Positions 1 through 64,000 of a stretch of DNA of 64,000 nt are shown piece after piece (the first letter of the stretch is position 1; the number at the start of each line of letters is the position of its first letter). The DNA is taken from the NCBI GenBank assembly GCA_017506865.1, contig JAFCMP010000001.1, forward strand, positions 992,001-1,056,000, read 5' to 3'. The DNA comes from Tribonema minus. Lineage: Eukaryota > Sar > Xanthophyceae > Tribonematales > Tribonemataceae. A program made the translations under genes and the position numbers. Below the pieces are notes generated by a model. It saw only the letters and a list, made by a program, of their open reading frames with translations. It ran no database searches and had not been told where the DNA came from.

Positions 1-583
1 CCATTCTCGTTTCAGATCGTTCTGATGACCAACACCTTCCCAGCAGCCGCTGACCCCCCTTGCCCCCGCCCGCCCCCGCACCCGCTGTGGCTGGTAATAC
101 AGCCAGTTTTTTGTGCTTCGGCACCTGATGGTTGACATCAATCCTGCTACCAGACCTCGTACCTGTCGGCGCCCTGCTGACAAAAGGCGTCTTCAATGCT
201 CACTGACGCTCGCTCGTCCCGCGTGCCTGCACGCCACACCTTCCGCGTGACGCCATTCGCAGCGGCGGCAGACAAAACCAGCTCAATCACTACATCCGCA
301 GCACTCGCTGATCCCCCCACCCGCCACCCCTCAAAAAATCAACTGCTTCGTTGCGCCTCGCGCCACAACGCTGTGCCAGCGAACGCGCCCACCAGCTCGG
401 TGTTGGCATCTGCTACGGCCTGCGCTTCCCGGAGCTGTCCATGCTCATGCGCACCACCCGTTTTTCAAACCATCCCAACGGCCACACCTTTGCGGCAGCC
501 TCTGACCCTCCTCGCTTCCCTCCCCCCCAAACCAAAAAATCTGTTTCATCAAACGTTGCGGCGAAAAACACCACCGCCACCAG
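1..583 (+). repeat. Intron with about 188-bp tandem units, each carrying an exon-edge copy or its remnant
   Basis: This is intron sequence of the omega-amidase gene. Three related blocks rich in C (around 30-70, 230-320 and 475-530) share a 'cacctt...gcagc..ctgac' core. The block at 393-457 repeats the acceptor and the first 60 or so bases of the real exon (581-645) with a 188-bp offset. In that copy the Asp after the catalytic Cys-Tyr is Gly (GICYG) and similarity stops abruptly after MLMR, so it is a decayed duplicate and not an alternative exon. Confidence 0.75.
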
Positions 584-988
584 CTCGGCGTCGGCATCTG
601 CTACGACCTGCGCTTCCCGGAGCTGTCCATGCTCATGCGCGCCGCCGGCTGCGACGCCCTCTTCTTCCCCGGCGCCTTCAACCTGACCACGGGGCCAGCG
701 CACTGGGAGCTGCTGCTGCGCGCGCGCGCGCTTGACAACCAGTGCTACGTCTGCGCCGTCAGCCCCGCGCGCGGGCCGCCCGGCGGCGGGTACCAGGCGT
801 GGGGACACAGCACCGCGGTGAGTCCCTGGGGCGAGGTGATTGCGACGACGGGGCACGAGAGCGCGATCGTGTACGCGGTGCTGGAGCTGGGGAGGAACGC
901 GGAGGTGCGCGCGAGCATCCCCGTGAGCCAGCAGAAGCGCCGCGACGTGTACGGTCTGCAGGGGCCGGGGGAGCGCGCGGGGCTGTAG
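584..988 (+). CDS. NIT2: Omega-amidase / nitrilase-like protein, C-terminal exon (partial gene)
   Basis: The exon encodes the last 134 residues of a carbon-nitrogen hydrolase of the NIT2 (omega-amidase) group, which hydrolyses alpha-ketoglutaramate or alpha-ketosuccinamate and belongs to nitrogen salvage. The catalytic cysteine lies in GICYDLRFPE close to the exon start, followed by PGAFNLTTGPAHWELL and SPWGEV, which match the NIT2 family closely and in order; the C-terminal pattern IPVSQQKRRDVY also fits. The exon opens after a CAG acceptor at 581-583 and ends at TAG 986-988. The N-terminal half, with the catalytic Glu and Lys, lies off the left edge. A damaged copy of the exon start lies 188 bp upstream. 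Identity as nitrilase superfamily is firm; NIT2 rather than another branch is very likely. Confidence 0.9.
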   Translation, partial: LGVGICYDLRFPELSMLMRAAGCDALFFPGAFNLTTGPAHWELLLRARALDNQCYVCAVSPARGPPGGGYQAWGHSTAVSPWGEVIATTGHESAIVYAVLELGRNAEVRASIPVSQQKRRDVYGLQGPGERAGL

Positions 989-1289
989 GATGTGGTCGCG
1001 CGCGCGCATGTGCGGCGCTGAGTGTAGTAGTTGTTGAAGTAGGACAGTACATAGCACTCCCCGGTGGGTGCGGCCCGTTGGGTAACGACCGCGTCCGCGC
1101 ATCATCGGTGTACAGCGGCGCTCGACGCACAGTCACAACTATCGATAAATACACAACAACACATTATGTGAAGCCTGATTGCTGCGCAGTACATATGTGC
1201 TCTCTGTCACTGCTCTGCCCTGCACCTGCATTGAACTTGTGAGGTGTATGATGCACTGGAGTGTGATGCGCTTTTTTGCATCTTCATCA

Positions 1290-1530
1290 GAGTCATGAGG
1301 TATATGCTGCGCTGGACTGGCAGTGTCTTGCTGTGTTGACGCTTCTGTCTCGGTGCTCAGCCCGGCGGCCATTGCAAGCCCCTCGTTTATCAGTGTCAGC
1401 AATGGGTATTGTCACATATGGTGCGCTGGAGTGGCAGTGGCTTGCTGTGTTGTCGCTTTCGTCTCAGTGCTCAGCACAATGGCCGTTGCAAGCCCCTCTT
1501 CATCAGAGCCAGCGATGGGTATTGTCTCAA
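1290..1530. repeat. Two-copy 114-bp tandem repeat
   Basis: The segment beginning near 1300 (gctggactggcagtgtcttg) recurs 114 bp downstream with about 85-90% similarity by eye (cttgctgtgttg at 1327 and again at 1441; gcaatgggtattgtc in both). A third, partial unit is visible around 1240-1290. No coding meaning is apparent. Confidence 0.8.
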
Positions 1531-1628
1531 GCTCCTTGTGCCAGTCAAGCACTGGCCGCTGCATGCCACTGGCGCCATAGCTCCTTGTGCCAGTCAAGCA
1601 CCGCCGGCTGCATGCCACTGGCACCATA
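1530..1628. repeat. Two-copy 49-bp tandem repeat
   Basis: The unit starting gctccttgtgccagtcaagc at 1531 recurs at 1580 with few differences, both ending in gcatgccactggc.ccat. It directly follows the 114-bp repeat. Confidence 0.8.
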
Positions 1629-2385: not shown

Positions 2386-5300
2386 CTAGCCCGCGATGTG
2401 GCGCCCCGGCGGCGACTCCGGGCCGCCCGGCGCCGCGCGCTTGCCGCCCTTGGTGAGGAACGCCTCGCCCTGGATGATGACCTCCGCGAGCTCGAGGCGC
2501 TTGAGCGACAGGTCCACGGGCGCGGCGTACATGTTGAGCGTCTCGGCGCGCGTGTTCAGGTCGTCGAGGTCGAGCGCGTAGACGCCCCACGAGACGGTGC
2601 GCGCGCGCTTGGCCTCGCCCTGGTCGCGCAGCTCCACGACGATGACGGAGCCCGCGCCGAGCGTCTCCAGCGGGTTCTGCATGTGCCACGTCTGCGCCCA
2701 CCACAGGTACCCCGGGCGCGTGAGGCACGGGAAGACGACGTCCTGCTGCGCCTCCGACAGCTGCCCCTTGCCGTTGTACACGGAGACGCTGAGGAACGGC
2801 GACACGAGCGCGTCAGTGCTCGCCATGGTCGTCCTCTCGAGCAGCAGCGACAGGTACGTGAAGCCGAACAGCTTCTCGGGCGGCGCGAGCAGCGGCGCGC
2901 GCTCCGTGGGGTGGAAGTGCTTCTGCATGAGCAGCGCGAGCTCGCGCTCGCCCTTGACAATGTCCACGACGCTCTTGCCGTCCGCGGGGCGCGCGAGGCT
3001 CAGGTCGCCGCCCTTCCACGCGAGCACCGCCGCGGCCGCCGCGTTGCAGTGCTCGGCGGCGTCGTGCAGCGCCGTCGCGCCCCTGCGGTCCTGCGCGTTC
3101 GGGTCGGCGCCGTTCTCCACCAGCCATGCCGCGACCTGAGTTGGGTTGGGGGGTAGTGCGGGGCAGTCTTGAGGTTACGGTGCGCGTTATTGCTATGATG
3201 ATGCAGACGTGAGCGCAGATGCGGAGGCAGTGCATATGGTCCGGAGTAGGGTAAGGGCAAGGATTGGCGTTGAGATGAGGGCAAAGGTGGGGTCGGCATT
3301 GTTCTCCACCAGCCATGCCGCGACCTGAATTGGGCGGGGGCGGGGCACAAGGGGTGGCGTGGCGGCCGTGAGTGAAGACGCGGGTCAGGGGTGAGGTTGG
3401 GGAGCAGGGGGGGCTGAGACTACAATCAGGGCGAGGTCGGTATACGTTGGAGTCCGCGTCGTTCTCCACCAGCCACGCCGCGACTTGGGGTGCGTTCAGG
3501 CGCGGGGGTAGTGCAGGGCAGCCTTAGGATAAGAGCTAGGGTATGGTCAGTGCATGCAGGTCGACTGTAAGGTGGACGGCAGCAGCCGCAACCAAGAGTC
3601 CCCGTGCAGCTCACCTGCCGAGCAGACGGGGCGCTGCCGGCGGCATGCGCCGTCGGGTACCTACCTACCCTTACGTACACAACAGCAGTCTAAACGCCAA
3701 CACGCACAAGGCTTCACGGCGCACCTGCTGCACGATGCCGGGGCCATTAGAGCGCGCTGCGGCGGCCGGCTCGCGCGCAGGCAACTGGCAGCACGTGTGC
3801 GCTGCCAGTTGCCTAACCTGATTTACACCACAGCTTCAAACAGAAGCAGAAGCATTGATACCGTTTAGACGAACGCCGTGCGTCCTGTCAACATCGGCGC
3901 ACCTGCTGCACGGCGACGGGGCCGCCGGGGCGCGCGGCGGCGGCCTCGGGCTCCCTCGCGCGCGCCGCCACAGACCTACCTATCTACTTGACCTGAAGTA
4001 CCCACTTTGAGTACCAGCCTCAACTACGCTGTCTAGCAGCAGTGCTCGCGGCGCACCTGCTGCACGGCGCCGGGGCCGCTGGGGCGCGTGGCGGCGGCCT
4101 CAGTCGCTCGCGCGCGCTGCCATAAACCTACCTACCCTGAAGTATGCAACAGCCTCACATACATGCATACGTATACACCAATATACATACACCATCTGAA
4201 CGCAACACACACACAAGGCTTCACGGCGCACCTGCTGCACGGCGACGGGGCCGCCGGGGCGCGCGGCGGCGGCCTCCGGCTCGCGCGCGCGCGCCGCCAG
4301 GTGCAGCGGCGTCTCGCCCGCCCTGTTGGTGACGCGCACGAGCGCGCGGCGCCCGGCGAGGTCCAGGAACTCCATGGGCTCGCGGCGCTTGTCGTGACGG
4401 AACTGGTACAGGCCGACGACCATGCGCAGCGGCACCATCCACGTCTGCAGCGAGCCCTCGGTCTCCGCCTGGAAGTACAGGCGCCCCTCGCGGTTCTTCT
4501 TGTCGAGGAGGTCCGGCGTGTGCAGCTCAAAGGCAAAGTCGACGTGCTCCGACTTCTTGAGCATGGCGCTGTCGAGGCGGATCGCCTTGCTCGGCTCGAG
4601 GTCCGTCTTCTTGTGGAAGTACATGAGGTGCGTCTCCGTGAGGACGCACCAGCGCCGGATCCACCTGGGTCAGGGTTGAAGTTAGGGTTATGGTTAGGTT
4701 TAGCCGGATCCACCTGTGCCCGCGCGCGTGCGTGTGTCGCCGGTGCTGAGGATCAGGTTCTTGAGGTTCCATTGGGTTTTCAGGTAGCATTGTTGGGTCT
4801 AGCGATAGTGTGACATGTAGAGTAGGCTGCAGTTGCATCGATCTAGCCCCTCAACCTACAGTTCGAGGGGGGGCAGTCACCCAGAGGTACGCGAGGTGCG
4901 TCTTCGTGAGGCTCCCCTTGCGCACAAGCACGCGCGCGTGGTTGACGGTGGTGAGGATTCGGTTTTGAAGTAGCGTTAGCGTGAGGGTCGGGTTCGAGCT
5001 GTCTGCGATGCGCATTGGCACCCATTGCGCACACCTCTCATCTGACACGAACGCCGAGCCTGTGACGAGAGAGAGGCGTGTGTCACTATTTGGCAATACT
5101 AGGGGCGGCCTGCCATCAGCAGCACAGCTCCAATCAGTGGGCAATGCTCTGATCTGCAAGCCCCCGTGTAGAGCTGATCCCGCTCTGCACCCTGACAATA
5201 ACAGGCACAAAGCACGTCACACCCGCGCCTCACAATCTGGGGGAGTAGCATCATGTTTTGAGGTATGTACTGCGGTACATGAACGATGGTATGCGATGGT

Positions 5301-8300
5301 GTTTTGAAGTATTGCGAGTGTAAACTTCTACAAGAACACGCATACCTGTCAGTGCTGCAGCGCTTGTTGAGGTAGCCCGCCATGACTTGTAAAAGCCGAT
5401 GCCCGCGCGTGCCTTCGCAGCGCGACATGCTTTGGGGTATCACATCACCAAAGCAACATCACCAGTCTTCCAGTGCTGATGAGTTTCATCGTACACCGTA
5501 CGTAAATGTACTTCAAGTGCATGCATACCTGTCAGTCTCGCGGCGCTTCTTGAGGTAGCCCGCCATGAGCAGGGTGGACTCGTCAAAGCCGGTGCCGCCC
5601 TTGTTTGCCTTGGCCTTGACGGCGCCGATGCGCCTCACGTCGCGCGCGCGCGCGGTGCGCGCCTGCTTGAACACGTTGATGTTGGAGCTTATCTGCGCCA
5701 TGAGCGGGCAGTGGGCGGGGACACGTGGTTAGGGCTACGGCTAGAGAAGGTGCGGTCGGCCAGAAGAAGCAGCGGCATTGGCAGCGCTGCGACTCACGGC
5801 ATGCCGGTACACCTGATATGCAGTCAGTACGGCAGTCACAGGCGCAGGTCAACCGCCCGCGTCGCACTTCAACGTGACCTTCGACGCCATGGCATGGACG
5901 CTGCCCGGTCTCTCGCCGACAGACACGTAGTGCCATACATATGGAGGGAGATGAGACTAGAAAGATTGTGCAACGATTCGGTGCAACATTATCTGATGGT
6001 GTGCGACGACGGCGATGTGGAATTTGGGGCTCACCTTTCGGCTGCTGAGCAGTGAGGCCTCGGTCTCCTTGGCCTCCTCCCTGGCGAGCGCTGCCTCCAC
6101 GTCCATGTTGGCGCGCTTGGCCAGGTACCTGCGAAGCGCGACACGCGGCGTGCATGGGCTTTCGTCAGTGCCCAGCGGGTTTGAGCAGCGCTCAGCACAG
6201 ATTGGCAGTGATCAGCATGGTGTGGGAGTGCTGAGCACTGTTTAGCAAGTGCTCTGCAGGATGTGGCAGTGCTCGCGGGATCAGGCAGGTCTCAGCAGGA
6301 TCAGGCGGTGCTCAGCACGCTGCATCATCTTAGCAGTGCTCAGCAGGATTAGGCAGTGCTCAGGATCAGGCAGTGCTCACGTGGCAATACTTGCCGCCGT
6401 CGGGCAGTGCAAACATGGATTTGAATGCCCTCGCGCCGCCGCTGCTCTTCGGCTGAGCATCACCGCCTCGTTCACTCTGAGCGACTCACTCACTCACTCA
6501 CTTGCAGAGGTCGTGATGCGCGGCGCCGGCGGCGCACCGCCTCACTCACTCTGAGTAACTCACTCACTCTGAGTGACTCACTCGCTCTGAGTGACTCACT
6601 CACTCTGAGTGACTCACTTACTCAATCACTATACTTGCAGAGGTCGCAGTGCGCGACGCCGCCGGCGGCGTAGTGCCTCGCACACTCTGAGTGCCTCACT
6701 CACTCAATCACTCACTTGCAGAGGTCGTAGTGCGCGACGCCGGCGGCGTAGTGCATGCACGTGTTGCCCAGCTTGTCGCGCCCGTAGACGTCCTCCGGGA
6801 AGGGCTCCAGCAAGGCCACAATGTCCAGGCGGCCTGCGGCGGCCGCGGCGTGGACCAGGCTGCCAAACGTGCGGCCGGCGTCCCACCTGCGGTCATCGCA
6901 CGGGCAGGTGACAGTGTGAGTTTTAGAAAGTAATGAAAGGCATGTCACAGGGGCAGGTATGTGGGGTAAGTGGCGGTGTGTTCATTCGGCGGCTGCAGCG
7001 GGGACTGGGCTGCCAAACTTGCAGCCGGCGTCCCCACCTGCAGGTGACGCAGGGCAGGTATGTAAGGCATGTATGTCGCAGGGGTAGGCATTTGAGGCAA
7101 GCGGGGTAGGCAAGCGGGGTAGGCATTTGAGGCAAGCGGGCATGTGCACCATGCAGCGGCTGCGCCGTGGGGCGGCCAGGCTGCCAAAGGCGCGGCCTGC
7201 ATGGGGGATGTAGGGCAGGTATGTAGGGCACGTACGCTAGGTAGGTAATGTTTGCGACTGTTTAAAGCGCATGCTGCAGTTGGCGCGAGCGCCATCCGGC
7301 CAAAACTCTGTGCACCGCCCTGCATGAGGTCCGCCGTTCCGCACACTCCGCCCACCATGCCTGACCTCAACTCTAACCTGTATCCCAAGCCATTTTCGCG
7401 AGCGTACCTGTTCCTCACAAACAGCAGCTCCGGCCAGTCCGTGATGCCGGCGGTGACGCCGTTCGCGTCGCCCGTCGCCGCCTCCGCGAACAGCGCCTTC
7501 ACCGCGGCCTCGAGCCGCTTGTTACGCGCGAACGCGCGGCCGGCGCGCTGGATGCGCCGCGCCGCCGCCAGCGCGCGCGCGTAGCGCCGCCGCGCGATGA
7601 GCCTCCGCGCAAGCGCCTGCACCAGCACGACGCCGGCGACGCTGCGCTTGTACGCGGCGCGCGCGGCGGCGCCGCGGGCGGCGGCCGCGATGCGCGTCTC
7701 GGCGGCGCGCGCGCGCGCAAAGGCGCAGCGCGCCAGGAAGCCGCGCACCGCTGCCTGGATGGCCGTCGCGGCAAAGCGCGAGCGCGCGAGCGCCTTGCGC
7801 GCGAGGACCATGCGCGCCCACGCCTCCATCTTGGTGGCCTGCCGCGCTCACGTTTGCGCGTGCGCTGGGGTTAGTGTCGATGCTCAAGGTGGCGGCGTGC
7901 GTCAGTGTTGAATTTGAAGTCGAAAACCACCATGCGGCTGCGTGCGAGCGCCCTGCGCGCGAGGACCATGCGCGCCCACGCCTCCATCTTGGTGGCCTGC
8001 CGCGTCGCGAGCGCGGCGTGTCGCGCGTGCGCTGGAGTTAGTGTTGAAGCTCAAGGCGGCGGCGTGCGTCACTGGTGAGGTTGACGCTGGACACCACGTG
8101 CAGCCGTTCGCGGGCGCCTCATACGCGCGGGCCATGCGAGCCTGCACCTCCCTTTTGGAGGCCTGGGATGCTCACGCCCCGCAGCGAGCAGTCCCAGATC
8201 CCAACTCTTATTCTTCTTGCCTCCTGCTCTCCATGTAGGCTGTTCTGGGTACATGAGAGCACGAGGCTCAGTAGGCTGACCCGACCTATGCTGACCTGAA

Positions 8301-11300
8301 CCCCAGGGTGTCCCTCGCCTAGCGCCATCACGCTCTCACGCATGCCGGCCCCGCGTCATTGATTCGCAACTAGGCTCATCGCGTGAAGCCAGTGTGCCCC
8401 CGACACGGTACCGTCCATGTGCATACACACGTACCTGGTACAAAGCTAACCCACTCCCTCACCTTGCGCGCCTCCCGCTCGCGCTTGAGTCATACAGTCG
8501 CAGTATGGCTCCTCGCACGAAGCCAGTGCGCCCCGCCCCAGTACCGTCCATGCGCATACATTTGCCCTCGAAGTTTCAATTCAAAGCCTACGTAGCCCCC
8601 ACGGGCTGCCTCACCTTGCGCGCCTCCCGCTCGCGCTTGAGCCGGTCCTGCGTCTTGAGGGAGCAGAAGGTCTTGCGGGCGGCCAGGCCGCGCGCCATGC
8701 ACTGCAGCGCCGTCGCCGCGACGACGGCCGTGCGCAGGTGCATGCGCGCCAGCTTGCCGCGCACCATGGCCTGTATCGCCGTGGCGGCGGCGGCGTCCGC
8801 GCGCGCCTTCTGGATGGCCGCCTGCATCACAATACATATTTGTTTCGGGCAGCGTCAGGGGAGGCTCTTGCTCCACAAGATGAGATGGTTTTCGTTGCGC
8901 AGCAAATCGCATGCATCGCGGTGGCGGCGGCGGCGTCCGCGCGCGCCTTCTGGATGGCCGCCTGCAACACGAGTCGGATTTGTTACAGGCAGCGCCGCTA
9001 CAGGAGGTTCTTGCTCCGCGAGTTGACAAGTTTTTTTGTTTTGCAGCATCGCGATATAGAGGAGGTCTTTGCTCCGCAAGATGAGGAGGTTCTCGTTTTG
9101 CAGCAGACCGACTGTGTCGCGGGGCGGCGGCGGCGTCCGTGCGCGCCTTCTGGATGGCAGCCTACATAACGAGTCAGAGTTGCTTTAGGCAGCATCATGA
9201 GCGGAAGTGGTGCTTCACGAGATGACAAGGGTTTCTGTTGGGGCAGCATCGTTGCGGGAAGTTCGGGGCTTGTGGGGAAGGGGGGGGGGGGGGTCTGGAA
9301 TTTGGAACGTGCATATCAGCAGCGTAATTGCCTCGACGACAGTGCTCAGGCGACGCTGCCGCACACCCGCATGGCGGCGGCCACGGCGGCGGCCGCGCGC
9401 GCATTCTGAATGGGCGCCTGCTCCGCAAGGCCGAGTATCGCGAGGCGGCGGCGTTACAGAAGGTTCTTTTTGCTCCGCGAGAGATTTGGGTTTTTCTCTT
9501 CAAGCGGACGGTGGGCATCATCGAGGCAAATGCGATTCGGCAGTTCGTTGCCAGCTGACATTTTCCGCGCAAACCAGCTTGTTTGCGCAGCAGCACTCTC
9601 GCATGCGCGTGCGCGCACAACGTGCACGCACGCAGGCAGCCTCATGTACTTCAACGTTGAAGTGCCACGCATACACACCTTGCCCCACTTGCGCGCCAGC
9701 AGGCGGCGCGCGTACTTCTGGATAGTGACGGACGCCGCCTCCCGGCTGCGGCGGCGCTCTTTGGCCAGCCGCTTGGCGAGGCAGCGCGCGATGAAGCCGC
9801 GCGCAATGCGCTGCACCTGTTGCATCACAAAGGACACGCAAAAGCGTGCCGGTGTTAATGGCTGGCGCTTAGCGTTAGGGTTAACCCTAGGCAGCGCGCG
9901 ATGAAGCCGCGCGCGATGCGCTGCACCTGTTGCATCACAAAGGACGCGCAAAAGCGTGCCTGTGTTTAAGGGCGGACGCTGCTGATGCAGCACAAGCGGG
10001 AGGCGAGAGGTAGTGCCTGCATTGCCGTGCGTGGGTTGTTCCGGCGCCGTTCCTTGGCCAGCCTGATAGAGTGTGGGGACCCGTGTGCTGAGCGATGATG
10101 CAAGTGCTGAGCAGCGTGGCAAGCGGGCTGTGCCGGGGCCTGCTGCACCGCAAGCACTGCTGCAAAGCATCGTTGACGCTCTATTGAGAGGCATGCAAAC
10201 AAAGAGTGGGAGATCTGATTAAAGGCAGCGGTGCACGTGTCTCGCACAGTGTGCCGCGCCTGCAGCAGCGGCCATGTGCTGTTCCGTACGGTGCGAGGTG
10301 CTGTACTTTGGTCGGAAACCATGGATTTGAGGTGTCTTCCAGCTGCCGCAAGCTCGTGAGCAATGCCGCGCAATGCAGCGCACTCGCTGCCGTATTGCTG
10401 GTGTGGCAGCGCCTCATGCGAGAGTCGCTGATTTATCTGGGGTCAAGGCCCTGTCCTCGTGCTGCGGCAGGCCCTGCGCATTGCCGAGCCGTATCACATC
10501 AGTACTCCCGCTACTTGTGTTGTCGGCATTGCACAGATGGTTCAGACAGTGTGCTCGGGAGTACATGTCGGCGTTTGATGCGGCGACGAGGCTGCTGAGC
10601 AGCGCCACGTGTGCGTACGCATCGTCACCCTACCCTGCTGCTGCAGGGTCTTGCGCGCTATGCGCATCATCCGGCCGTATTGCATCATCAGCACTCCAGT
10701 GTATCTAGCAGTTCTACACAGACGCTCACAAGGTACGTGTATATTCCAACCCTAAGTAGCAAGCTTGGCATCGGCTATATGAAATTGTTCACGCCATAAG
10801 CAAGAAGTAATCAATACACAAGAAGTACACAGCCGGTATAGACAGTATACTTGTCGTTGCGAGCCAAGTTGCTGAGCAGTGCCACGGACGCACACGTTCC
10901 GCAGCCTGCTCTGGGGTCACGCGCTCCATGCGCGTTTGCAGCGGTGCCACATGATTGGCGTTCCTGTTTCGTGGCCGTAGTACACTAATGGTATATACAG
11001 TACCGTTGCTCACAGTAGCTTATTATTATTACGCGTCGTTGTAATACGCGCTGCTGAGCAGTGCCGCGAAAACGCACCCGTATCGCCGCCTTGTCCTGCT
11101 GCTGCAGGGCCTTGCGCGCCGCGTAGCCGCGCCACACGCGCTGTATGCCCGTGGCGCCCGCGACGTAGTGCTGCTGCAGCGCCCAGCGCAGCCTGTCGAG
11201 GCCGTCGTCCTTGAGGAACACCTGCGTCGAAAATGAGTTGGCATGGCAACACAAATGGCATTGAGCAAGATGGATCTTTACAACAATGACAATCTAATTC

Positions 11301-14300: not shown

Positions 14301-14493
14301 TCGGCATGAGTCCCAGCGGCTTCTTGGCGATGAGGTCGATGATGCCCTGGTTGTCGCGGAACGGGATGGACGTCACGTCGAGGCCCTCCGCGGTGTACTC
14401 CTGCTGCTCCAGCACGAAGACGTGGTGGTTGAACTGGCGCTGCAGCACCTCGTTGGCAAAGTTGATGCAGAGCTGCTCGAAGGAGCTGCGTGT

Positions 14494-14524
<31 letters not shown>

Positions 14525-37558: not shown

Positions 37559-37643
<85 letters not shown>

Positions 37644-53800: not shown

Positions 53801-56425
53801 CCTGTCTGCGACCTTGACGCGCGCGGGACGCTGCACCTCCTCATCGACGGCGGCTACGTCAACAAAGAGTCTGCTGCGTGGTTGTTGGAAGTGGTGAGAG
53901 CAGCGTGTGAGAGCCGCGCCGCTTTCGTGCGCGCGACGCATTGTTTTCGTCCAGTGATACTTCCATATTGTATACATGCCCCCATCTGCAACCTCGACGC
54001 GCGCGACGCGCTGCACCTCCGCATCGACAGCTGATACGTCAAGGGCTGGTAGAGTGACTCTCTGCTAAGGTCCCATTGCATGAAAGTCCTTGTGTTGAGC
54101 GCATCGTAGGCAGGTGACGCAGGCTGGGCGATTTGCTCATGGTGAGCACACGCTCTCAGGACAAGGCACCTCCTCATCAATGGCGGCGACGTCAATAGTG
54201 GCAAAGAGTATGTTTGGGAAGCAGGGATGTTTGTGATAACGGCAGCGGCCGTGCGGCAGCGCCGTGTCTGCACCGCTCACGAGCGCAGCGCACTTTTTCG
54301 CAGCAACCCGAGTCTCAGTGCCTTACTGTACAATTGCCGATCTTGCAGGCACACGGCAGACTGCTTGAGTGGCGTCAGGCCTATGACGACATGTGCCGGC
54401 AGTCTCCTGAAGAGCCTGCATCACCACGGTCAGCGTCACCATGCAGACATGGTAGTGGCACAGTGACAGCGCAGACGTCTATACTGCGCAACCACTAAAC
54501 GCAACACCACAAGTGCAATGAACACATCGAACAGAAGCACGCTGCCTTTGCTAACGTTCGCACCGTGCATGCGTCGAGCGCTGCTGCAGACCTGCCCGCG
54601 GACGCGATGCGCGCGCGCGCTTCGGCGTGTCTGCAGTCCCCCATCAAGTGCGCAGCATGACAACCAGCATCAGCCTACATGACCATACAACTCAACTGAA
54701 AGGCTTCAATAAAGGGCGCGCTCATCTGCTGTCGTCCTCAGGTGTAGGAAAACATTGAGAGCTTGTGCAGAAGCAGCATGCCTACTGCCTTTGCTGACGT
54801 TAGCGTTGTGCACGCCGAGCGCTGCTGCTGCAGACCTCCCCGCGGACGCGATGCGCGCGCATGCATCATTACGATCGGCATCAGCATGCAGAGTAGCGGC
54901 GCAGTGACAGCGCCAGCGTTATACCGCGCAACTACTTGAACGCAACACCACCAGCGTGGCACCAGTATGGTAAGTAGCATGCTGCTTTGCTGACGTCTTT
55001 ATCTCCAAGCTGACGTTCGCACCGTGCGCGCGCCGTCGAGCGCTGCTGCAGACCTGCCCGCGGACGCGATGCGCGCGCGCTTCGGCGCCGGCACCGTCAT
55101 CGCCAGCGACGTCGGCTCCACGTGGACCTTTGAGAGCTACAACTACGGCGACCTCCTCAACGGCCTCTCCACGTTCTTCCGCTCGCTGTGGCCATTCAGC
55201 ACGCGCGTCACGGTGAGCGCGCGCGCGCAGCAGCAGCAGCAGCAGTGCTCAGAGTTGACTGGCGGCGAACGCGGCTGGTGTGGTGCTGTGACGCAGGCAG
55301 AGCGCGAGCTGCGCTGACCAGCAGCAGCGCTTGTTGAGTATGGTTGCGGGCAGCGATCGCGATTGGTGCGGTGCTGTGCTGCGGACAGAGTCAGCCGTGC
55401 GAGCTGCGCTGCGCAGCCCGGCATCGCATGTCGTGGTTTCGCTGCCAGTGGCCCGAGGCAGCGCTGGCTGAGTGGTGTCCTGCCTGCGGTTAGGGTTAGG
55501 GTGAGCTGAGATGACTGTATGGCTATATCGCTGCTGCATGGGCCTGCTGGTATTGCATCCCCGCTTGCGGCCCACACGCCGCCATGTGTCCTTCCAAAGA
55601 GCCAAGCGCATCGGCTGCTGCTGACACGTGTCACCACATCAGGATGGCATGCTCTCAAAACAAAGCGGCGTCGCCCCTTGTGCCGGCGCAGATTCCTTCC
55701 ATGGCCAAGATCAGCGAGCAGCTCGCCTACATCAGCAGCGTCAAGCAGCTGGAGGACGCCAAGGCGGCCTCCGATCTGTACCTGCACCCGCCCATAGACC
55801 CCTACGCGACGCTCGAGTTCCACAAGTACAAGGAGATACAGCAGGTGCGCATGAATGATCCTTCTAGTTCTGGCTTCAACTCTTGCGTTAATAAGCTCCC
55901 AGTGCACTTGAGCTGCGCTCTGGAACCCCGTGCGGCTACCAATACCCCACATGTCATTGATGGTCCACAAGCGCTTGGGCCGATGTACTGGTTGCCCCTT
56001 TGACTCGTGTGAAGTCTAGCCAGGCCTTGCTTGCACGCCAATGCGCGGCGGCGGCGGTGGCGCACGCCGCACTACATCACCAAGCAGCACCAGCTGGACC
56101 CTCTCCAAATTTGTGCCGAAATCAGCTCGTGCACCGCTACGTCTGCTGCCTCCGAGACCTCACTGCCGCCGCTGCCACCGCTGCCGCCGCCGCCGCCGCG
56201 CTGCAGGTGGGCTACGCGTACGCCGCGGAGGCGGTCGCGCGCTGGCGCGAATCGACGCTGTGCCACGATTGGCAGCACATCGCCCCCGCGCACAGGCAGT
56301 CTGCGGCCTCGCACCTGTGGCCGAAAGCCTCCGCCGCCACTGCCGCCGCCGCCGCCGCCCCCTTGTCGTCGTCCCCCAGGAGCCCCCTACGCGTCGGCCG
56401 CTCCAAGTCCTTCGCGGTCGCGTGA
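41816..56425 (+). CDS. PNPLA6: Neuropathy-target-esterase family lysophospholipase (PNPLA6/7-like), 14 exons
   Basis: Membrane-anchored lysophospholipase/phosphatidylcholine hydrolase of the ER. Exons: 41816-42355, about 43327-44666, 45279-45568, 46103-46201, 46625-46987, 48138-48281, 49641-49739, 50465-50610, 51215-51377, 52308-52480, 53301-53545, 55052-55212, 55692-55844, 56207-56425; phases agree throughout, except that the exon 2 acceptor is uncertain. A transmembrane helix ([20 protein letters not shown]) is at residues about 18-37. Three cNMP-binding-like regions follow ([28 protein letters not shown]...[26 protein letters not shown]). The patatin domain has the oxyanion loop [12 protein letters not shown], nucleophile Ser in [21 protein letters not shown], catalytic Asp in IDGGYVNNLPAD, and the family C-terminus [16 protein letters not shown]. 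Exon 2 is unusually rich in Ala/Gly inserts, and its frame is broken by one base in a G homopolymer at about 44539-44607 (probable sequencing slip). The order matches animal and yeast NTE. Confidence 0.94.
42356..43326 (+). other. First NTE intron
   Basis: Donor CAG|GTGCGT at 42356. The acceptor is uncertain: phase-0 AG sites occur at 43324-43326 and 43333-43335, where the frame becomes family-like ([14 protein letters not shown]). No exon-edge copies were recognised in this intron, unlike the later ones. Confidence 0.5.
44535..44610 (+). repeat. G homopolymer tracts inside NTE exon 2 that shift the frame
   Basis: Several long G runs with few interruptions. The frame that carries [14 protein letters not shown] runs out of phase here, and the next family-like segment ([19 protein letters not shown], ending at the donor 44667) is in another frame, offset by one base. 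The number of Gs is the likely error. Confidence 0.75.
45569..46102 (+). repeat. NTE intron 3: copies of exon 3's 3' edge and TTAGGG repeats
   Basis: The exon end (gtggccgagatgca...tttgcggcggggtatgcgtcgctcgcgtcggggcag, about 45498-45568) is echoed at about 45621-45695 and more weakly at about 45850-45935. TTAGGG-like repeats lie at 45711-45747. Confidence 0.75.
46202..46624 (+). repeat. NTE intron 4: TTAGGG-like donor flank and a copy of exon 5's 5' edge
   Basis: GGGTTAGGGTTGAGGTTAGGG lies at 46216-46248, 15 bases into the intron. At about 46467-46530 the acceptor and start of exon 5 (gcaggccgcagc...cgccgctgcgccacttcagccgcgg) are repeated; the real edge is 46621-46690. Confidence 0.8.
46937..47072 (+). 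repeat. Exact 67-bp tandem duplication across the NTE exon 5 donor
   Basis: The segment from about 46937 (ttgcggagagcttgcggagc) through the donor (GTCAAG|GTGCGTGC) to cgtcactt is repeated immediately downstream, starting about 47004, with no visible mismatch. The second donor is at about 47055. Its use would insert 67 nt and shift the frame. Confidence 0.92.
47930..49030 (+). repeat. NTE exon 6 and its flanking edge copies (a coding exon lies at 48138-48281)
   Basis: Before the exon, its start (gctgcagctgctcacgggygcgctrgtcgcctcgcggctsgg) is copied at about 47943-47990, with shorter echoes at about 48080-48105 and further upstream. After the exon, its end (gccgaggaggagtccgctgacgtcctgctgctgcag|gt) is copied at about 48385-48430, 48565-48628, 48820-48865 and 48978-49025. 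The copy at 48565-48628 preserves the longest stretch and a GTAACT donor. Confidence 0.88.
49320..49880 (+). repeat. NTE exon 7 with edge copies on both sides (a coding exon lies at 49641-49739)
   Basis: Acceptor-plus-start copies (cccttgcacaggcggactggcacg) lie at about 49327-49350, 49415-49445, and 49515-49565. The exon end (gctggtgggcaacgccgcagaccgcccaaccgtgacgcaggt) is copied at about 49820-49866 with a GTGCGC donor. Confidence 0.85.
50091..50620 (+). repeat. Three-unit 158-bp tandem array whose last unit contains NTE exon 8
   Basis: The acceptor/exon start cgcagctcgagcgcgagctg occurs at exon-start positions 50149, 50307 and 50465, an exact 158-bp period. The first two units are nearly identical to each other. 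They differ from the real exon by gcccgggcga for gcctgggcga and by ending in a stop (gttgtatgtag). A fourth remnant lies at about 50020-50075. Confidence 0.93.
50780..51214 (+). repeat. NTE intron 8: copies of exon 9's 5' edge
   Basis: The exon 9 start (acagactgcagcggagcacggacgtcccctcccggtggca, about 51211-51255) is repeated at about 51030-51075 (cacaggctgcagcgcggcatggacggctcc) and truncated at about 50794-50815. The unit is about 180-220 bp. Confidence 0.8.
51515..52307 (+). repeat. NTE intron 9: at least four copies of exon 10's 5' edge and a telomere-like repeat
   Basis: Copies of the acceptor and exon start (gcagatccccgtggactacattg) lie at about 51520-51560, 51786-51835, 51980-52025 and 52131-52180, each followed by aacgcgcctctcaacgcccacttctatacggtact. 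The continuing part is absent from the real exon, showing that the copies descend from each other. CCCTAA repeats lie at 52069-52120. Confidence 0.88.
52069..52120. repeat. Interstitial CCCTAA telomere-like repeat in NTE intron 9
   Basis: About eight CCCTAA-type units with minor variation directly upstream of an exon-10 acceptor copy. Confidence 0.9.
52481..53300 (+). repeat. NTE intron 10: four copies of exon 10's 3' edge
   Basis: The exon end (ggctacgtgcgcgacctcacgctgcccatcacgtcgtacttcaggtgagcggcagc) is repeated at about 52620-52676, 52771-52830, 52890-52946 and 53008-53065. Three of the copies keep AGGTGA at the junction. Confidence 0.9.
53546..55051 (+). repeat. NTE intron 11: copies of exon 11's 3' edge and exon 12's 5' edge
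   Basis: Exon 11 end copies (tgcgacctcgacgcgar.ggacgctgcacctcctcatcgac) lie at about 53640-53710, 53809-53870, 53988-54045 and 54160-54200. Exon 12 start copies (ctgctgcagacctgcccgcggacgcgatgcgcgcgcgc) lie at about 54545-54615 and 54800-54870. Copies nearest the exon are the best conserved. Confidence 0.88.
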
Positions 56426-58513: not shown

Positions 58514-61500
58514 TCACAGGTGGCTGGTGTGGTACTTGTCGACGGCGGCGTACAGCTCGTCGAGCACTGAGGCGTAGTGCGCCGCCGCCTCCGCGCGCTT
58601 GAGCTTCATGGTCGGCGTCAGGAGGCCGTTCTCGGGCGTGAACGGCGCCGGCTCGAGGTGCACGCGCCGCACGCGCTCGAAGCGCTGCGGCGCTCAGCGA
58701 AGGAGCGCACGTGTGCGCTGTTAGAGATATGAACGATGATTTTTAAGTACAAGTTCGCTACAACGCATCCCATGCAAGAAAAATCTTTCGAGGCACAAGC
58801 TTGATTCAACACACACCCCGCGCGCGGTCCTGAGTTGAGGTGCAGCAACCACAGTGATGAGAATACATGGGGTGTTTTGCGAATGCCATACGCGATGCCA
58901 TACGCGAGGGGGGCGCGGATAGGGTGAGGCCATCCGTGATGTGAATCGGCGACTTTGTGGGGTGTATTCGCTCGACTGGCACACGCTGGGGGGGGACGGT
59001 GCGGATAGGGCGACGCCATCGGTCCACCTGCGCCGCGCCGCACACGCGTAACGAAGCACAGCGCTGGCTCCACCGCCGTGCAACCCAGCCCGGCAGCCGC
59101 TCCATACTTGAAGTACACACGCATACAAAGTTGAAGTGCGCATACGTAGTTGAAGTACACACCTGCAGCCCCGCGCGCGCCGCAGCCGCCGCGAGCTGCT
59201 CCATCACCGCCTCGCGCAGCGCGGCGCTGGCGCATAGCGCCTCGAGGTCGACGGCAGCGTTGCTCGCTGCTGCTGCTGCTGAGCCGTGTCGCGCGGCGTG
59301 CCACGCGACGACGGCGTCGGCGTCGGGCACTACGACGGCGACGAGAGCGGAGCGCAGCGAGTCGCCGTAGACGAAGGACTGCGCGACGAGGGGGGACTGT
59401 ACGTGCACATTCTCGATTTTCTCGGGCGCGATGTACTCGCCCTGGCTCAGCTTGAAGATGTTCTGGAGGGGGGGAGGGGGGGGGACGAGGGTTCAGCACA
59501 GGGGGGCGCGAGTATTATCGCGTGGACGTGGCATGCGTGTACGTGCTGTTTAACTTTGTGCTAAGACTGCCTCAGCCGTAGTGCTTCTTGAAGCGTACGA
59601 TGCGCGGGGCTAACCCTCGCCCGAGCCGTAAGAAAAGAGGAGTTGAAGGCGGGCCGGGAGACTAAAAGCACCATTTGACATCCATTCACCCATTAAGCAC
59701 TTGTGGCATGCACGTGGTTCATGGTGGTAAAAACGAAGATCACGACAACACTCTTTGCGACAGTCATCAGTATGGTGCGTTGCAGGTTACGCGAGTACAG
59801 CAACAACACAAAATGGTTGATGTCACAGTGCTGGCTACAAACAGGGCTCAACGCTAGGGGTCAGGTACACAGGGGGGGTACGGCTGTAGCAACCTCCCTT
59901 GACGTGTTTCCTGTCAATGATGCGCAACTGTCGGGCGTCCACAGGCCAGTGCCGATGGACCGCGCAGTACAGCTACGGTACAGACCTCAATACGGTATGT
60001 ACAGAAGCTCATTAAATTATCATCATGACGCGCATACGGTATGTATGGTATTCCAAAGTATACAGCTCAGTACGGTATGTACAGATGTTCATGAGACTTC
60101 GCCACGCCATTTTCCTGTCGATGGTGCGCAGCGCGCCATCCGCGGTCCACAGGCCAATACCAACTAACTCGCCGAGAATACAGTACATACACGTTTCGAT
60201 ACGCATACATCCAAGTACGTTAGGATTTGAAACCTCAAGTCATCCAAATGTGTTGGGATTTCAAACTTCGAGTATACCTTCTTCCTGTCGATGATGCGCA
60301 GCGCGCTGTCGGCCGTCCACGGGCCATGTCATTTGAACGGGAATATGGTGCACGATTCAAGACGTACAGAGGTTAGTTTCATGTCATGATAGTATATACT
60401 TCTACCTTGAAGTACGTTGAAGTACCTTTTTCCTGTCGATGATGCGCAGCGCGCCGTCGGCGGTCCAGAGGCCAATGTCGATTGACCGCGCATCATGTGC
60501 TCACGTCAATACGGTATGAACAAAAATTCACTAGACACTTTACCATACCTCTTCCCTGTCGATGATGCGCAGCGCGCGGTCGGCGGTCCGCAGGCCAACA
60601 TCGCCGGAGTGCGAATACAGTATGTACGGTGGTGTGCACCTCAATACTGTATGTACACAATTTCATCACACTTCAACATACCTTTTTCCTGTCGATGATG
60701 CGCAGCGCGCCGTCCGCCGTCCACAGGCCAATGTCGCCGGAGTGCAGCCAGCCGTCGGCGTCAATGGCCTCGGCCGTCTTCTCGGGGTCCTTGTAGTACC
60801 CCGCAAACACGTTGGTGCCGCGGAAGCAGATCTGCAAGGCAGCAGCGCCACTTGTGGTGCTTTCACATGTATTGACGCTGGTGGTAGCAGATCTGCACGG
60901 CAGCAGCAGCGCCACGGTGGTGCTTCCATACGTACCAATGTTTGTGGTACTACGTACCAATGTTGGTGGTAGCAGACCTGCTTTACAACTAAGTATATGG
61001 ATAAAAAAACATCTGCATCTGCAAGGCAGCAGCACCACAGTGATGCTTTCATGACAACGTTGGTGGTGACAGATCTGCAAGGCAGCAGCGCCACAGTGGT
61101 GCTTTGATATGTATTAACGCTGGTGGTAGCAGATCTGCAAGGCAGCAGCGCACCAGAGTAATGCTATCATACCAACGTTGGTGGTAACTGATCTGCAAGC
61201 AGCGCCACAGTGGTGCTTCCATGGGCCACAGTGATGCGTTCACAACAACGTTGGTGACAACGGATCTGGACGGCAGCAGCGCCGCAGTGGTGATGTCATA
61301 CCAACGTTTGTGGTAGCAGATCTGCACGGCGGCAGTGCCACAGTGATGCTTTCATAACAACGGCCCACCATGTAGAGAACAGGTGCCTGTGTGTGTGCAA
61401 AGCCCTTTATGCAGCTGCAACAGGATGCCATAGTGATGCTTTCATAACGATCCATCTCCAAGAGAACGGGTGCCCGTTGTAAAGAGTGAACAGATGACAG

Positions 61501-63206
61501 GAACGCAGACTTGCGCGGCAGCGCCGCAGCGGTGCTTTAGTGTCAACAGCCCATTCTATAGAACACAGGCGCCCTCTTGAAAGTGAACAGACGATAGGAA
61601 CGCAGATTGCACGGCAGCGTTACAGTGGTCTCATATAACAATGGTCCATGGAGAACGGGTGCCCGTTTGAGTGCAAAAACCCTTCTTGAAAAGCAAACAG
61701 ACAGCACAACTGACGATGAAAATGCAGATCTGCGCGGCAGTAGTGCCACAATGATGCTTCAACAATGGTCTACGTCAGGTATATGTACCGATTGCCGGAT
61801 TGTGTACAATGTTGTTCTTTGTAAAGCGAATGGAGGATGCATACTTGTACTAAGTACACACAACAAGGACCAACTAGGTACTTCAAGTGCTTGTACTAGG
61901 TACCTCTTCAAGCAACTGAATTACAAATTACTTCGCCGGGCCCCGCGCACGGCTCGCCGCCGCCGCCGCCCTCGCGTGGGTCCTCTGCCGTGTTACGAGT
62001 CCATGTGCAATCACTACACACACATTGTGGTATACTGCAAGTACCTCGAGCAGTGCCACGAATCTGTGTGCAAGCAAGTACCCCCACATCTAGCAAAGAA
62101 CCACAAACAACTAGGCACTTCAAGTACTTGAACTACACGCACCTCGCCGCGCCCCGCGCACGGCTCGCCGCCGCCGCCGCCCTCGCGCGGGTCGCCGCCG
62201 TGCCACGAGTCCGTGTGCAGATAGCCCATCTCAGGGACGTCCATGAGGCAGATCTCGGTGCAGGGGAACGGGCCGCCGACGTGCCCCGCGGAGAAGTCGC
62301 CCGGCTGCGGCGCGGTGCAAAAGTTCACATTGAAGTAAGGGATGGCAAAAGTCCACACTTGAAGTACATGCGTACAATGTGATAAAGAAGAAGAAAGATG
62401 AGATGAGTAGGACGCACAGGGTAACGGGCCGCTGATGTAGGGTTAGGTAACCCTATTCCTAACCCTAACCCTAACCCGCGGGGAAGTCGTCCCGGCTGCG
62501 GCGCGGCGCAAAAGTTCACACTTGAACTCCAAGTGCATGCATCATACAGAGTTCGAGTATGCACAGGGAAACAGCCCGTCGCCGTCTTCGGCAGAGAAGT
62601 CACCGGGCGGCGGCGCGGCAGGAAGGACGGCAAGAGTTCACACTTTGAACTTAGAGTACATGCTTCAAGTACACTGCAAGTACACACAGGGGAATGGCCG
62701 CCGACGTTCCCCGCGGGAAAGCCGCTCGGCTGCGGCGCGGTTGGATTACGACGGCGGAAGTTTACACTTGAAGAACATATACTGCATACACAACGCTTGA
62801 GGAACGTGCGCGTGCAGGGCATGCGCGTGTGCTCGAACGTCAAGTGCACGGTGATCTACTGGGGCATCGAAACATTCGAAGCACATGCACGTGTACTTCA
62901 TGTGCACGGTGCATCACTGACCATGTGCGGGGAGGGTGGAGGCTGACGCGTCTGAAGTCGTGGGCCGAGTTTTCAAACATGGGCGTCAGCTGTTTGAACT
63001 TCGAATGGCAGCGAAAGTGACAGCGCAATACGTACCCCTTTGCTGCATGCCGCGCACAGGCGCGCACGCACCGCATCAGCAGTGCTCAGCGGCAGCAGCA
63101 GCGCTCACCATAGTGGCGCCGGAGCGCGTCTCCGCCTGCCTATTTTCTTCGCCTGCCTATTTTCTTCGACATGTACCGCTCGATGCATGCCGCGTGCGGA
63201 CCACAC

Positions 63207-63262
<56 letters not shown>

Positions 63263-63928
63263 GCGCACACATCGACTACCCCTGATGTTGCATGCACAAC
63301 CGTCAGTACATACCGTGTGCAGGAGTGCTCCACGGCGGCAGCAACGCTCACCAAGGCGACGGTAGCGTGGACATACGCTTCCGTCTGACCCTAAAGTTGC
63401 ATGCATGCCCCTCAGTACGTATTACATACCGTACACAGCAATGCTCAGCAGCAGCGGCAGCAGCGCTCACCATGGTGACGGTCGCGCCGGCGCACGTCTC
63501 CGTCTGCCCTTCACACCTGCCACAAAACTCTTGATACATGCATACTGCATAAATACCAATACGTCAACATCGGCAGCAGCTCACCATGGTGATGGTCGCG
63601 TCGGCGCACATCTCCATCTGCCCCTAATACTTCCACAAAACCCTCGTTACATACGTACTGCATACACGACACGTCGAGTGTGTGTGTGTGTGTGTGCGTG
63701 AGTGTGTCAAGGCAGCAACGCTCACCATGGTAATGGTCGCGCCGGCGCACGTCTCCGTCTGCCCGTACCCCTCGATGAGGTCGCAGCCGAGCAGGATGCG
63801 CATGAAGGTGAGGACGTGCGGCGCGATGGGCGCGCTGCCCGTCACCACGAGCCGCAGGCGGTCCATGCCCAGCGCCGCGCGCAGCTTGGCAAAGATGAGG
63901 CGGTCCCAGAGGGCGTGCTTGTTGGTGC
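58514..63928 (-). CDS. ACSL: Long-chain acyl-CoA synthetase (AMP-forming), C-terminal five exons; gene continues past the right edge
   Basis: Activates long-chain fatty acids to acyl-CoA via an acyl-adenylate. Exons: 63928-63726, 62304-62143, 60831-60682, 59462-59163, 58684-58514 (stop TGA at 58516-58514); phases agree. Visible ANL-superfamily motifs: [29 protein letters not shown] (adenine pocket), [55 protein letters not shown] (conserved Asp and hinge), [20 protein letters not shown] and the C-terminal [15 protein letters not shown] with the catalytic Lys region. A Gly-rich insert replaces the usual E-G-E loop in the second exon. The [14 protein letters not shown] form is that of eukaryotic ACSL/LACS enzymes of ER, peroxisome or plastid envelope. 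The N-terminal P-loop (YTSGTTG) part lies beyond 64000. Family certain; subcellular site unknown. Confidence 0.95.
59890..60681 (-). repeat. Five copies of an ACSL exon's 3' edge in the following intron
   Basis: The exon end with donor (plus strand ccttttt/cctgtcgatgatgcgcagcgcgccgtccgccgtccacaggccaatgtcg, 60680-60737) is repeated at about 60550-60612, 60427-60485, 60283-60325, 60105-60160 and 59903-59950. All keep the cctgtcratgrtgcgca core; the nearest is nearly intact and also continues into gccggagtgcg. Confidence 0.9.
60832..61760 (-). repeat. Array of about ten acceptor-region units upstream of an ACSL exon
   Basis: The unit (gcagatctgcaaggcagcagcgccac with gtggtgctttcat and acaacgttggtgg) recurs about every 55-110 bp from 60825 to about 61345. 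More diverged units (cgcagatt/cttgc..cggcagc) continue to 61745. On the gene strand each carries CTTGCAG|ATCTGC, an acceptor copy. Confidence 0.88.
61925..62002 (-). repeat. Copy of the 3' edge of an ACSL exon
   Basis: cttcgccgggccccgcgcacggctcgccgccgccgccgccctcgcgtgggtc...gttacgagtcc repeats the real edge at about 62141-62215. The ggcactt/gctacacgc flanks are also repeated. Confidence 0.85.
62439..62780 (-). repeat. Telomere-like repeat and three copies of an ACSL exon's 5' edge
   Basis: CCCTAA units at 62439-62477 are followed by copies of the exon start (cccgcggagaagtcgcccggctgcggcgcggtgcaaaagttcaca; real 62284-62330) at about 62474-62522, 62590-62642 and 62708-62765. Each copy is followed by acttgaa and cat/gtaca. 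Confidence 0.85.
63100..63725 (-). repeat. Four copies of an ACSL exon's 3' edge, with an (AGC)n microsatellite
   Basis: The exon end (caacgctcaccatggtaatggtcgcgccggcgcacgtctccgtctgccc; real 63715-63764) is repeated at about 63574-63628, 63455-63512, 63340-63390 and 63098-63142. A pure (CAG)n run lies at about 63207-63261. Confidence 0.9.
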
Positions 63929-64000
63929 CTGCGGCGTCACGCGAGAGGGTGACGTGATGAGAAGTTGAAGTTTGCACTGAGTTGAGTAAACTTCAGCAAG

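What the first reader, a model, noticed from the sequence alone, without database searches (positions are those of the whole stretch)
1..64000. Exon-edge echoes: nearly every exon is flanked by decayed tandem copies of its own splice-site regions
In at least six of the genes the intron before an exon holds repeats of that exon's 5' edge with acceptor, and the intron after holds repeats of its 3' edge with donor. Units are about 50-190 bp, two to ten per intron, often more diverged with distance from the real exon. This polarity is not what random duplication predicts. It suggests recurrent tandem duplication anchored at splice junctions, which lengthens introns and litters them with decoy AG and GT sites. 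I know of intron gain by tandem duplication of AGGT segments (proposed by Rogers and later supported experimentally), but not of a genome in which almost every intron shows a serial record of it.
Basis: partly seen in the sequence, partly recalled or inferred. Interest (0 to 1): 0.88.

Follow-up and report, generated by a model that had tools for sequence, protein, structure and literature searches.

The report
Exon edges repeatedly copied into introns

Summary
The pattern is real. The genome is Tribonema minus. In the window 130 near direct repeat pairs lie within 1 kb (4 inverted pairs; low-complexity filter on), and 25 of 39 confident exons carry intronic copies of their own edge. Over 253 junctions in 331 kb, 38 of 128 acceptors and 47 of 125 donors have copies; 155 of 156 copies have the stated polarity. 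"Nearly every exon" holds for some genes only: 26 of 121 junctions outside the window and the kinesin genes.

Copies decay neutrally and mostly keep GT or AG.

Anchoring holds in part. Uniform simulations with realistic introns put on average 15-41% of clusters on a junction (55-74% with very short starting introns); 79% are observed. With exons masked, intron edges still show a 2- to 3-fold excess, less in the window alone. The copied exon part rarely exceeds 75-80 bp, whatever the exon or unit length. Whether this is mutational targeting or selection on splicing is unsettled. The NCBI myosin model has three echo-derived segments that the relatives compared lack.

The parts
389..458 (+). acceptor echo of nitrilase exon 584-984
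   Evidence: 93% identity over 70 bp
584..984 (+). last exon of nitrilase-type gene (CN_hydrolase)
   Evidence: Pfam PF00795; HMM exon
2389..20436 (-). one gene: myosin motor, IQ, PH, ankyrin, AIDA C2 protein (NCBI model P0126, 1804 aa)
   Evidence: 1803 of 1804 residues of P0126 map exactly here
3290..3340 (-). acceptor echo of exon 2417-3135
3451..3532 (-). second acceptor echo of exon 2417-3135
3675..3781 (-). donor echo of exon 4232-4664; taken as an exon (3722-3811) in P0126
3895..3970 (-). donor echo of exon 4232-4664
4046..4124 (-). donor echo of exon 4232-4664
5319..5385 (-). donor echo of exon 5529-5692; taken as an exon (5345-5431) in P0126
6461..6534 (-). donor echo of exon 6716-6886
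6591..6679 (-). donor echo of exon 6716-6886
6987..7059 (-). acceptor echo of exon 6716-6886
7940..8157 (-). acceptor echo of exon 7408-7838
8454..8489 (-). donor echo of exon 8615-8821
8906..9044 (-). acceptor echo of exon 8615-8821
9111..9244 (-). acceptor echo of exon 8615-8821
9371..9421 (-). acceptor echo of exon 8615-8821
11337..11515 (-). acceptor echo of exon 11078-11221
11532..11760 (-). two further acceptor echoes of exon 11078-11221 (11532-11752, 11708-11760)
11757..12001 (-). two donor echoes of the exon ending near 12056-12067 (11757-11850, 11775-12001); part taken as an exon (11915-12019) in P0126
12414..12471 (-). acceptor echo of exon 12067-12322
12603..12677 (-). acceptor echo of exon 12067-12322
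12958..13103 (-). donor echo of exon 13232-13385
14968..14993 (-). donor echo of exon 15082-15227
15406..15603 (-). donor echo of exon 15920-16195
15671..15717 (-). donor echo of exon 15920-16195
15769..15837 (-). donor echo of exon 15920-16195
16268..16412 (-). acceptor echo of exon 15920-16195
16475..16631 (-). donor echo of exon 16751-16996
17096..17294 (-). two donor echoes of exon 17339-17664 (17096-17183, 17145-17294)
17819..17876 (-). acceptor echo of the P-loop exon 17339-17664
   Evidence: (95% to the exon edge over 55 bp)
17931..18188 (-). acceptor echo of the P-loop exon 17339-17664
   Evidence: (91% to the exon edge)
28216..28355 (-). acceptor echo of exon 27789-27941
33327..33483 (-). 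donor echo of exon 33567-33738
46937..47071 (+). youngest event: perfect 67-bp duplication across the donor of exon 46625-46987 (51 bp exon, 16 bp intron)
   Evidence: TRF 100% match
47777..47992 (+). two acceptor echoes of exon 48138-48281 (47777-47837, 47936-47992)
48374..48897 (+). three donor echoes of exon 48138-48281 (48374-48427, 48567-48625, 48822-48897)
50017..50367 (+). two acceptor echoes of exon 50465-50610 (158-bp unit)
51782..51811 (+). acceptor echo of exon 52308-52480
52119..52155 (+). acceptor echo of exon 52308-52480
52621..52948 (+). three donor echoes of exon 52308-52480 (52621-52718, 52769-52868, 52889-52948)
53639..54200 (+). three donor echoes of exon 53301-53545 (53639-53864, 53792-53875, 54166-54200)
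54550..54628 (+). acceptor echo of exon 55041-55212
54793..54862 (+). acceptor echo of exon 55041-55212
60063..60612 (-). four donor echoes of AMP-binding exon 60682-60831 (60063-60158, 60262-60331, 60413-60612, 60423-60480)
61069..61362 (-). three acceptor-side matches of exon 60682-60831 (61069-61351, 61080-61172, 61320-61362)
61907..62008 (-). donor echo of exon 62143-62304
62477..62526 (-). acceptor echo of exon 62143-62304
62686..62741 (-). acceptor echo of exon 62143-62304
63456..63626 (-). two donor echoes of exon 63726-63928 (63456-63517, 63570-63626)

Best explanation
Tribonema minus keeps making short head-to-tail tandem duplications of about 150 bp. When one straddles a splice site, the allele survives only if splicing keeps using the exon-side copy of the site: the last acceptor, the first donor. 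The other copy is then intron sequence, an echo, which mutates freely. Repetition lengthens introns and leaves a one-sided series of echoes. Shown: local tandem copies, near-strict polarity, decay that fits neutrality, retained decoy GT and AG, an excess of junction-spanning units over uniform nulls, and exonic parts that rarely exceed about 75 bp. Inferred: that the outermost sites are used in vivo because exons are recognised as units helped by enhancers deeper than 75 bp (exon definition), and that the junction excess comes from breaks or nicks being commoner at exon-intron boundaries.
For: Local copies: 130 direct pairs, 0 beyond 1 kb, 4 inverted, low-complexity filter on. Two echo-bearing stretches were searched against the whole genome (best candidates only are scored there): one matched only itself; of the 49 matches of the other, one is itself, two are local echoes (91% and 95%), and none of the remaining 46 falls on an echo inside the stretch (they fall on myosin exons and a poly-C run). 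Polarity 155 of 156. Divergence at codon positions 1, 2, 3 is 8.1, 7.4, 14.3% over 155 copies (ratio 1.84) and 7.0, 7.5, 12.5% over the 85 nearest (ratio 1.73), near the 2 expected if the echo is free and the exon changes only at silent sites. Echoes keep GT in 62 of 71 and AG in 57 of 65. A perfect 67-bp duplication across a donor is a fresh example. Junction clusters 75 of 95 against means of 0.15-0.41, highest single run 0.48, in uniform simulations with realistic intron lengths (and the first row). Exon-masked edge-to-interior coverage 0.74 (0.58-0.94) against means of 0.25 and 0.36 (highest run 0.49) in uniform runs and 0.75 in a half-anchored run; outside the window 0.92 (0.62-1.32). In exons of 200 bp or more 1 of 33 echoes reaches beyond 80 bp, where uniform placement gives 44%.
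Against: No RNA data: which sites are used is inferred from homologous proteins and one NCBI model. In the window alone the exon-masked ratio is 0.56 (0.41-0.78), so its lower end meets the highest uniform runs; in the random and C24 loci it is 1.21 but with an interval of 0.62-3.36. A mixed null in which half of the introns began at 100-260 bp and took most duplications reaches a junction fraction of 0.74 and masked ratios of 0.44-0.71; with the observed 75-bp cap it reaches 0.55 and 0.37-0.52. Uniform runs with all introns starting short reach 0.74 and 0.59, with too much coverage and too short introns. Intron parts of real echoes are shorter than in simulation (median 0.28 of the expected length against 0.86-1.0), so the simulations do not describe intron decay fully. 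Duplications are not intron-specific: 45 intergenic clusters, 0.31 per kb, against 0.89 per kb in introns; the C24 stretch shows no intron excess by coverage (0.113 against 0.130).
Confidence: 0.68

Rival explanations
1. Ordinary tandem duplication, uniform along the DNA, plus purifying selection on the coding sequence, explains everything; there is no junction bias.
For: Polarity is forced by this model; decay fits neutrality; duplications also occur between genes (45 clusters); coverage is flat across the intron and falls only inside exons; the window-only masked ratio of 0.56 (0.41-0.78) is not far from the highest uniform run, 0.49.
Against: Uniform simulations with realistic introns give mean junction fractions of 0.15-0.41 and mean edge-to-interior ratios of 0.25-0.53, against 0.79 and 1.01 (unmasked) or 0.74 (exon-masked) observed. 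Very short starting introns bring the fraction to 0.55-0.74, but with a different profile, coverage or intron length.
Confidence: 0.22
2. Echoes are maintained because they act in splicing, as alternative exon ends or decoys.
For: The NCBI model P0126 includes three echo-derived segments; many echo sites score as high as the real ones.
Against: Codon-position divergence fits free decay; GT and AG in echoes are retained about as well as neighbouring positions whose source is constrained; relatives lack the extra segments where compared (P0129 for all three, P0127 and P0001 for two).
Confidence: 0.05
3. Introner-like mobile elements that carry splice sites.
For: Introns of an alga filled with repeats that contain splice sites.
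Against: Units match their own exon and, in the two stretches searched genome-wide, no dispersed family.
Confidence: 0.02
4. Assembly artefact.
For: One pair, 46937-47071, is identical and could in principle be a mis-assembly.
Against: Exonic parts of nearest copies differ from the exon by 7.5% in the median and up to 27%, at 85 junctions in the window and in many other loci.
Confidence: 0.02

Closest known systems
Potato RdRp gene, intron gain by a tandem duplication that crosses an intron-exon boundary (PMC4974935; abstract and passages seen)
   Same: The duplicated unit holds the 3' part of an intron and the 5' part of the next exon; the acceptor-side echo has the same anatomy.
   Different: There one event made a new intron; here copies stay inside existing introns, occur on both donor and acceptor sides, serially and in many genes.
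Rogers model of intron gain by duplication of an AGGT exonic segment, with the ATP2A1/ATP2A2 case of Hellsten et al. (as described in passages of PMC4974935 and PMC3443670; the Hellsten paper was not held)
   Same: Tandem genomic duplication involving splice sites.
   Different: No exonic AGGT duplication is needed here, and mostly no new intron arises.
Introners (PMC9860276 and PMC7789003, passages seen)
   Same: Repeats that build introns in algae and protists.
   Different: Introners are dispersed families; these are private local copies. 'Tribonema' has 0 occurrences in the main text of PMC9860276.
Minisatellites and local tandem arrays (recalled)
   Same: Head-to-tail local units, variable copy number.
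   Different: Units of about 150 bp that lie across exon edges more often than chance placement gives.

Membership tests
[quoted passage not shown]
[quoted passage not shown]
   The copies counted lie inside predicted introns; P0126 treats three as exonic but relatives compared lack them and no RNA was available
Boundary-crossing duplication (potato RdRp type) | unit spans an intron-exon boundary | tested here: met
   exonic part median 52 bp in 85 nearest echoes, of which 4 have no exonic part
Introners | similar copies in many unrelated genes | tested here: not met
   window self-comparison and two stretches against the whole genome
Introners | terminal inverted repeats or target-site duplication | tested here: inconclusive
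   4 inverted pairs in the window, but short terminal repeats would be missed and target-site duplications were not examined
Exon-definition splicing | exon-proximal site chosen over equal decoys | not testable with these tools
   inferred only; needs RNA

The most novel reading that the evidence does not exclude
A mutational process in this alga makes roughly nucleosome-length tandem duplications preferentially centred on exon-intron boundaries, for instance through paired nicks or breaks linked to transcription, splicing or exon-edge chromatin, so that introns grow by serial copying of their own splice-site regions.
Probability: 0.35. Interest if true: 0.85.

Novelty: new variant of a known kind. 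Interest (0 to 1): 0.63.

Why it matters
If it holds genome-wide, one species gives many natural experiments, datable by divergence, in which a splice site was duplicated beside itself and the cell had to choose. That makes two open questions directly testable: how introns grow without mobile elements, and what lets a spliceosome pick the right one of several near-identical sites. It also warns that gene models in such genomes can swallow echoes, as the NCBI myosin model appears to do three times.

Tried and rejected
Telomere-like repeats at duplication joints: (TTAGGG)2-like runs are common in introns (59 in 105.9 kb) and at first seemed to sit at copy ends (19 of 59 against 6.3 expected at 8 bp). 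That test masked the runs, which itself makes copy ends. With the same masking applied to random places the excess shrank: 20 against 14.6, reached in 4 of 60 shuffles at 10 bp; 23 against 17.4, reached in 1 of 60 at 20 bp; between genes there were fewer than in shuffles (4 against 6.9 and 6 against 8.2 of 40). I do not build on it.

The first exon calls used too small a penalty per intron and produced many spurious short exons; they were replaced. The first extension of echo alignments picked up trivial self-matches; its extents are discarded and redone, while its offsets stand. One search stopped with an error after three of eight settings; the second and third had on average 8.7 and 0.3 clusters per run (junction fractions 0.34, highest 0.55, and 0.33), too few to use.

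First guess of the organism, Pavlovales CCMP2436, was dropped: scaffold number, size and GC differ (passages of PMC9756366), and named Tribonema minus.

Polarity as evidence for a special mechanism: rejected on geometry. Donor-acceptor asymmetry: 47 of 125 against 38 of 128, p = 0.19. Nucleosome link: unit sizes fit, but intergenic units do not differ clearly (median 120 against 143, p = 0.18), so this stays a guess. Introners and artefact: see rivals.

Dropped before counts: L001-L004 (small first hits) throughout, and L007 (a repetitive coding locus) from the counts; include it. Weak entries kept in the counts: a poly-C match at 992 bp (exon 16751-16996), an intron-only 32-bp repeat (exon 48138-48281), and a 45-bp exon call in L032 that is probably an echo itself.

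No report of this pattern in Tribonema was seen in the listings of searches of an open-licence library; the Tribonema genome paper was not among the listed results.


Full report
What it is. The window is positions 992001-1056000 of a contig of a 158.18-Mb assembly; that contig has 2,451,431 bp. [quoted passage not shown]

Gene models. No annotation was supplied, so I trained a small coding/splice-site HMM on long, GC3-rich frames and used it on the window, on 19 random 10-kb loci, on 50 kb of a second contig and on five kinesin loci. Three checks: (a) 22 of the 24 Pfam kinesin matches that fall in the five loci overlap an exon call, while 6 of 28 exon calls there have no such match (compared by hand); (b) myosin-head matches run in profile order through successive window frames; (c) the NCBI protein P0126 maps to the window for 1803 of 1804 residues, with internal exon edges within 6 nt of mine except where the model enters echoes. 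P0126 also shows that the 'ankyrin/PH' and 'myosin' parts (2389-20436) are one gene.

The observation. With the low-complexity filter, the window holds 130 direct repeat pairs, none more than 1 kb apart, and 4 inverted pairs. The 19 random loci hold 224 near direct pairs (47 in L007), 48 far direct pairs (38 in L007, 9 in L005) and 9 inverted pairs. Testing 60-mers centred on junctions, copies occur at 23 of 89 acceptors and 32 of 86 donors, always on the intron side; intron middles 27 of 149, intergenic sites 15 of 183 and exon middles 8 of 87 show no such one-sidedness. The enlarged set gives 38 of 128 acceptors and 47 of 125 donors; window 35 of 77, kinesin loci 24 of 55, other loci 26 of 121 junctions. 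The window was picked for its pattern, so the last figure is the fairer estimate. The single wrong-sided copy belongs to a 45-bp, low-scoring exon call in L032 that sits where an echo of the exon before it is expected.

Why polarity is not surprising. If a segment spanning an acceptor is duplicated in tandem, only the downstream acceptor leaves the exon intact, so the upstream copy becomes intron; for a donor the reverse holds. A tandem duplication across a junction that survives selection on the protein must therefore show the polarity.

Decay. Over 155 copies, divergence from the real exon is 8.1, 7.4 and 14.3% at codon positions 1, 2 and 3 (ratio 1.84); over the 85 nearest copies 7.0, 7.5 and 12.5% (ratio 1.73). 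A free copy beside an exon that changes mainly at silent sites predicts about 2. Within aligned stretches exon-side identity is 0.90-0.91 and intron-side 0.83, as expected when one or both partners drift. GT is kept in 62 of 71 and AG in 57 of 65 echoes: decoys are not purged. By motif score 48 of 79 donor and 37 of 76 acceptor echoes equal or beat the real site (best site within 12 bp, so lenient). Choice should therefore rest on something besides the local consensus; that it rests on exon recognition is my inference. [quoted passage not shown]

Is there anchoring? Coverage by duplications is flat from intron interior to junction (0.25-0.39), then falls to 0.01-0.05 at 81-100 bp into the exon. 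In 112 introns, 75 of 95 clusters touch an exon. Forward simulations with uniform placement, the same pipeline and realistic starting lengths give mean fractions of 0.15 to 0.41, highest single run 0.48 (3 or 4 runs per setting; and the first row). Since an exon partner hardly drifts, junction copies stay visible longer; I therefore masked all exons and used intron-to-intron matches alone. The ratio of coverage near the edge to that inside is 0.74 (bootstrap 0.58-0.94) against means of 0.25 (75-bp cap) and 0.36 (150-bp cap; highest run 0.49) under uniform placement and 0.75 when half of the events are junction-anchored. Split by source it is 0.56 (0.41-0.78) in the window, 0.92 (0.62-1.32) outside it, 0.92 (0.62-1.29) in the kinesin loci and 1.21 (0.62-3.36) in the rest. 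Starting half of the introns at 100-260 bp raises the uniform model to 0.44-0.71 masked and a junction fraction of 0.74, but to 0.37-0.52 and 0.55 with the 75-bp cap; starting all of them short gives 0.74 and 0.59 with far more coverage and shorter introns than observed. The leftover sequence of duplicated introns (579 bp) is about as long as whole introns without duplications (602 bp), which speaks against short starts. I conclude a two- to three-fold excess at junctions, likely but not certain.

The 75-bp limit. The exonic part of the nearest echo has median 52 bp, middle half 34-65, 90th percentile 75; 2 of 85 exceed 160 bp, both at the doubtful L032 exon. It is unrelated to unit length (Spearman 0.18, p = 0.12) or exon length (-0.04, p = 0.70); for exons of 200 bp or more 1 of 33 exceeds 80 bp where uniform placement predicts 44%. 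Either duplications are made that way, or longer ones are lost because they copy all the enhancers of the splice site and make the decoy as good as the original. I cannot separate these.

Consequence for annotation. P0126 contains three stretches made from echoes: a repeated piece where the model jumps from the real exon into the echo at 11915-12019 (residues 869-903), residues 1352-1380 from the echo at 5345-5431, and residues 1527-1556 from 3722-3811. P0129 lacks all three; P0127 (transcriptome source) and P0001 lack the second and third; the first was not compared in P0127, and P0001 does not reach it. Whether this is an annotation error or real exonisation needs RNA.

Limits. 331 kb, about 0.2% of the genome; no RNA; own gene models; simulations that under-describe intron decay; no related genome could be compared here.

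Noticed in passing
window introns and other loci; examples 9869-9883, 12021-12059, 52066-52121, 15228-15252: Short telomere-like runs (two TTAGGG units, at most 1 mismatch) are common outside exons: 59 in introns (0.56 per kb), 9 in gene flanks (0.23), 40 between genes (0.27), 0 in exons, against 0.01-0.13 per kb in introns for four control words; both orientations equal in introns (30 and 29). Some sit between two tandem copies, but the association with copy ends is marginal once masking is controlled.
   Followed up: partly
G000:C2:8-403 and G000:C3:154-441: Long perfect TTAGGG arrays near contig starts suggest that TTAGGG is the telomere repeat (only the first places were listed).
   Followed up: partly
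window 11915-12019, 5345-5431, 3722-3811: The public myosin model P0126 appears to have swallowed three echo-derived segments that the relatives compared lack.
   Followed up: partly
window 12050-12067 and 15228-15252: A likely real donor (AAG, then GTTAGG) and a real acceptor (CCCTAACCCTAG) seem to be made of telomere-like sequence; seen.
   Followed up: no
window 23497-24678: The SAM decarboxylase gene has one long exon and no echoes, and the kilobase bins from 19 to 27 kb hold no near repeats.
   Followed up: no
L007: A locus with a protein built of long coding tandem repeats: 3054 of 4032 exon bases lie in repeats. Left out of the later counts.
   Followed up: no
donor sites of the window and the loci fetched: Donors prefer CAG before GT, with G at intron position 3 in 79%.
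   Followed up: no
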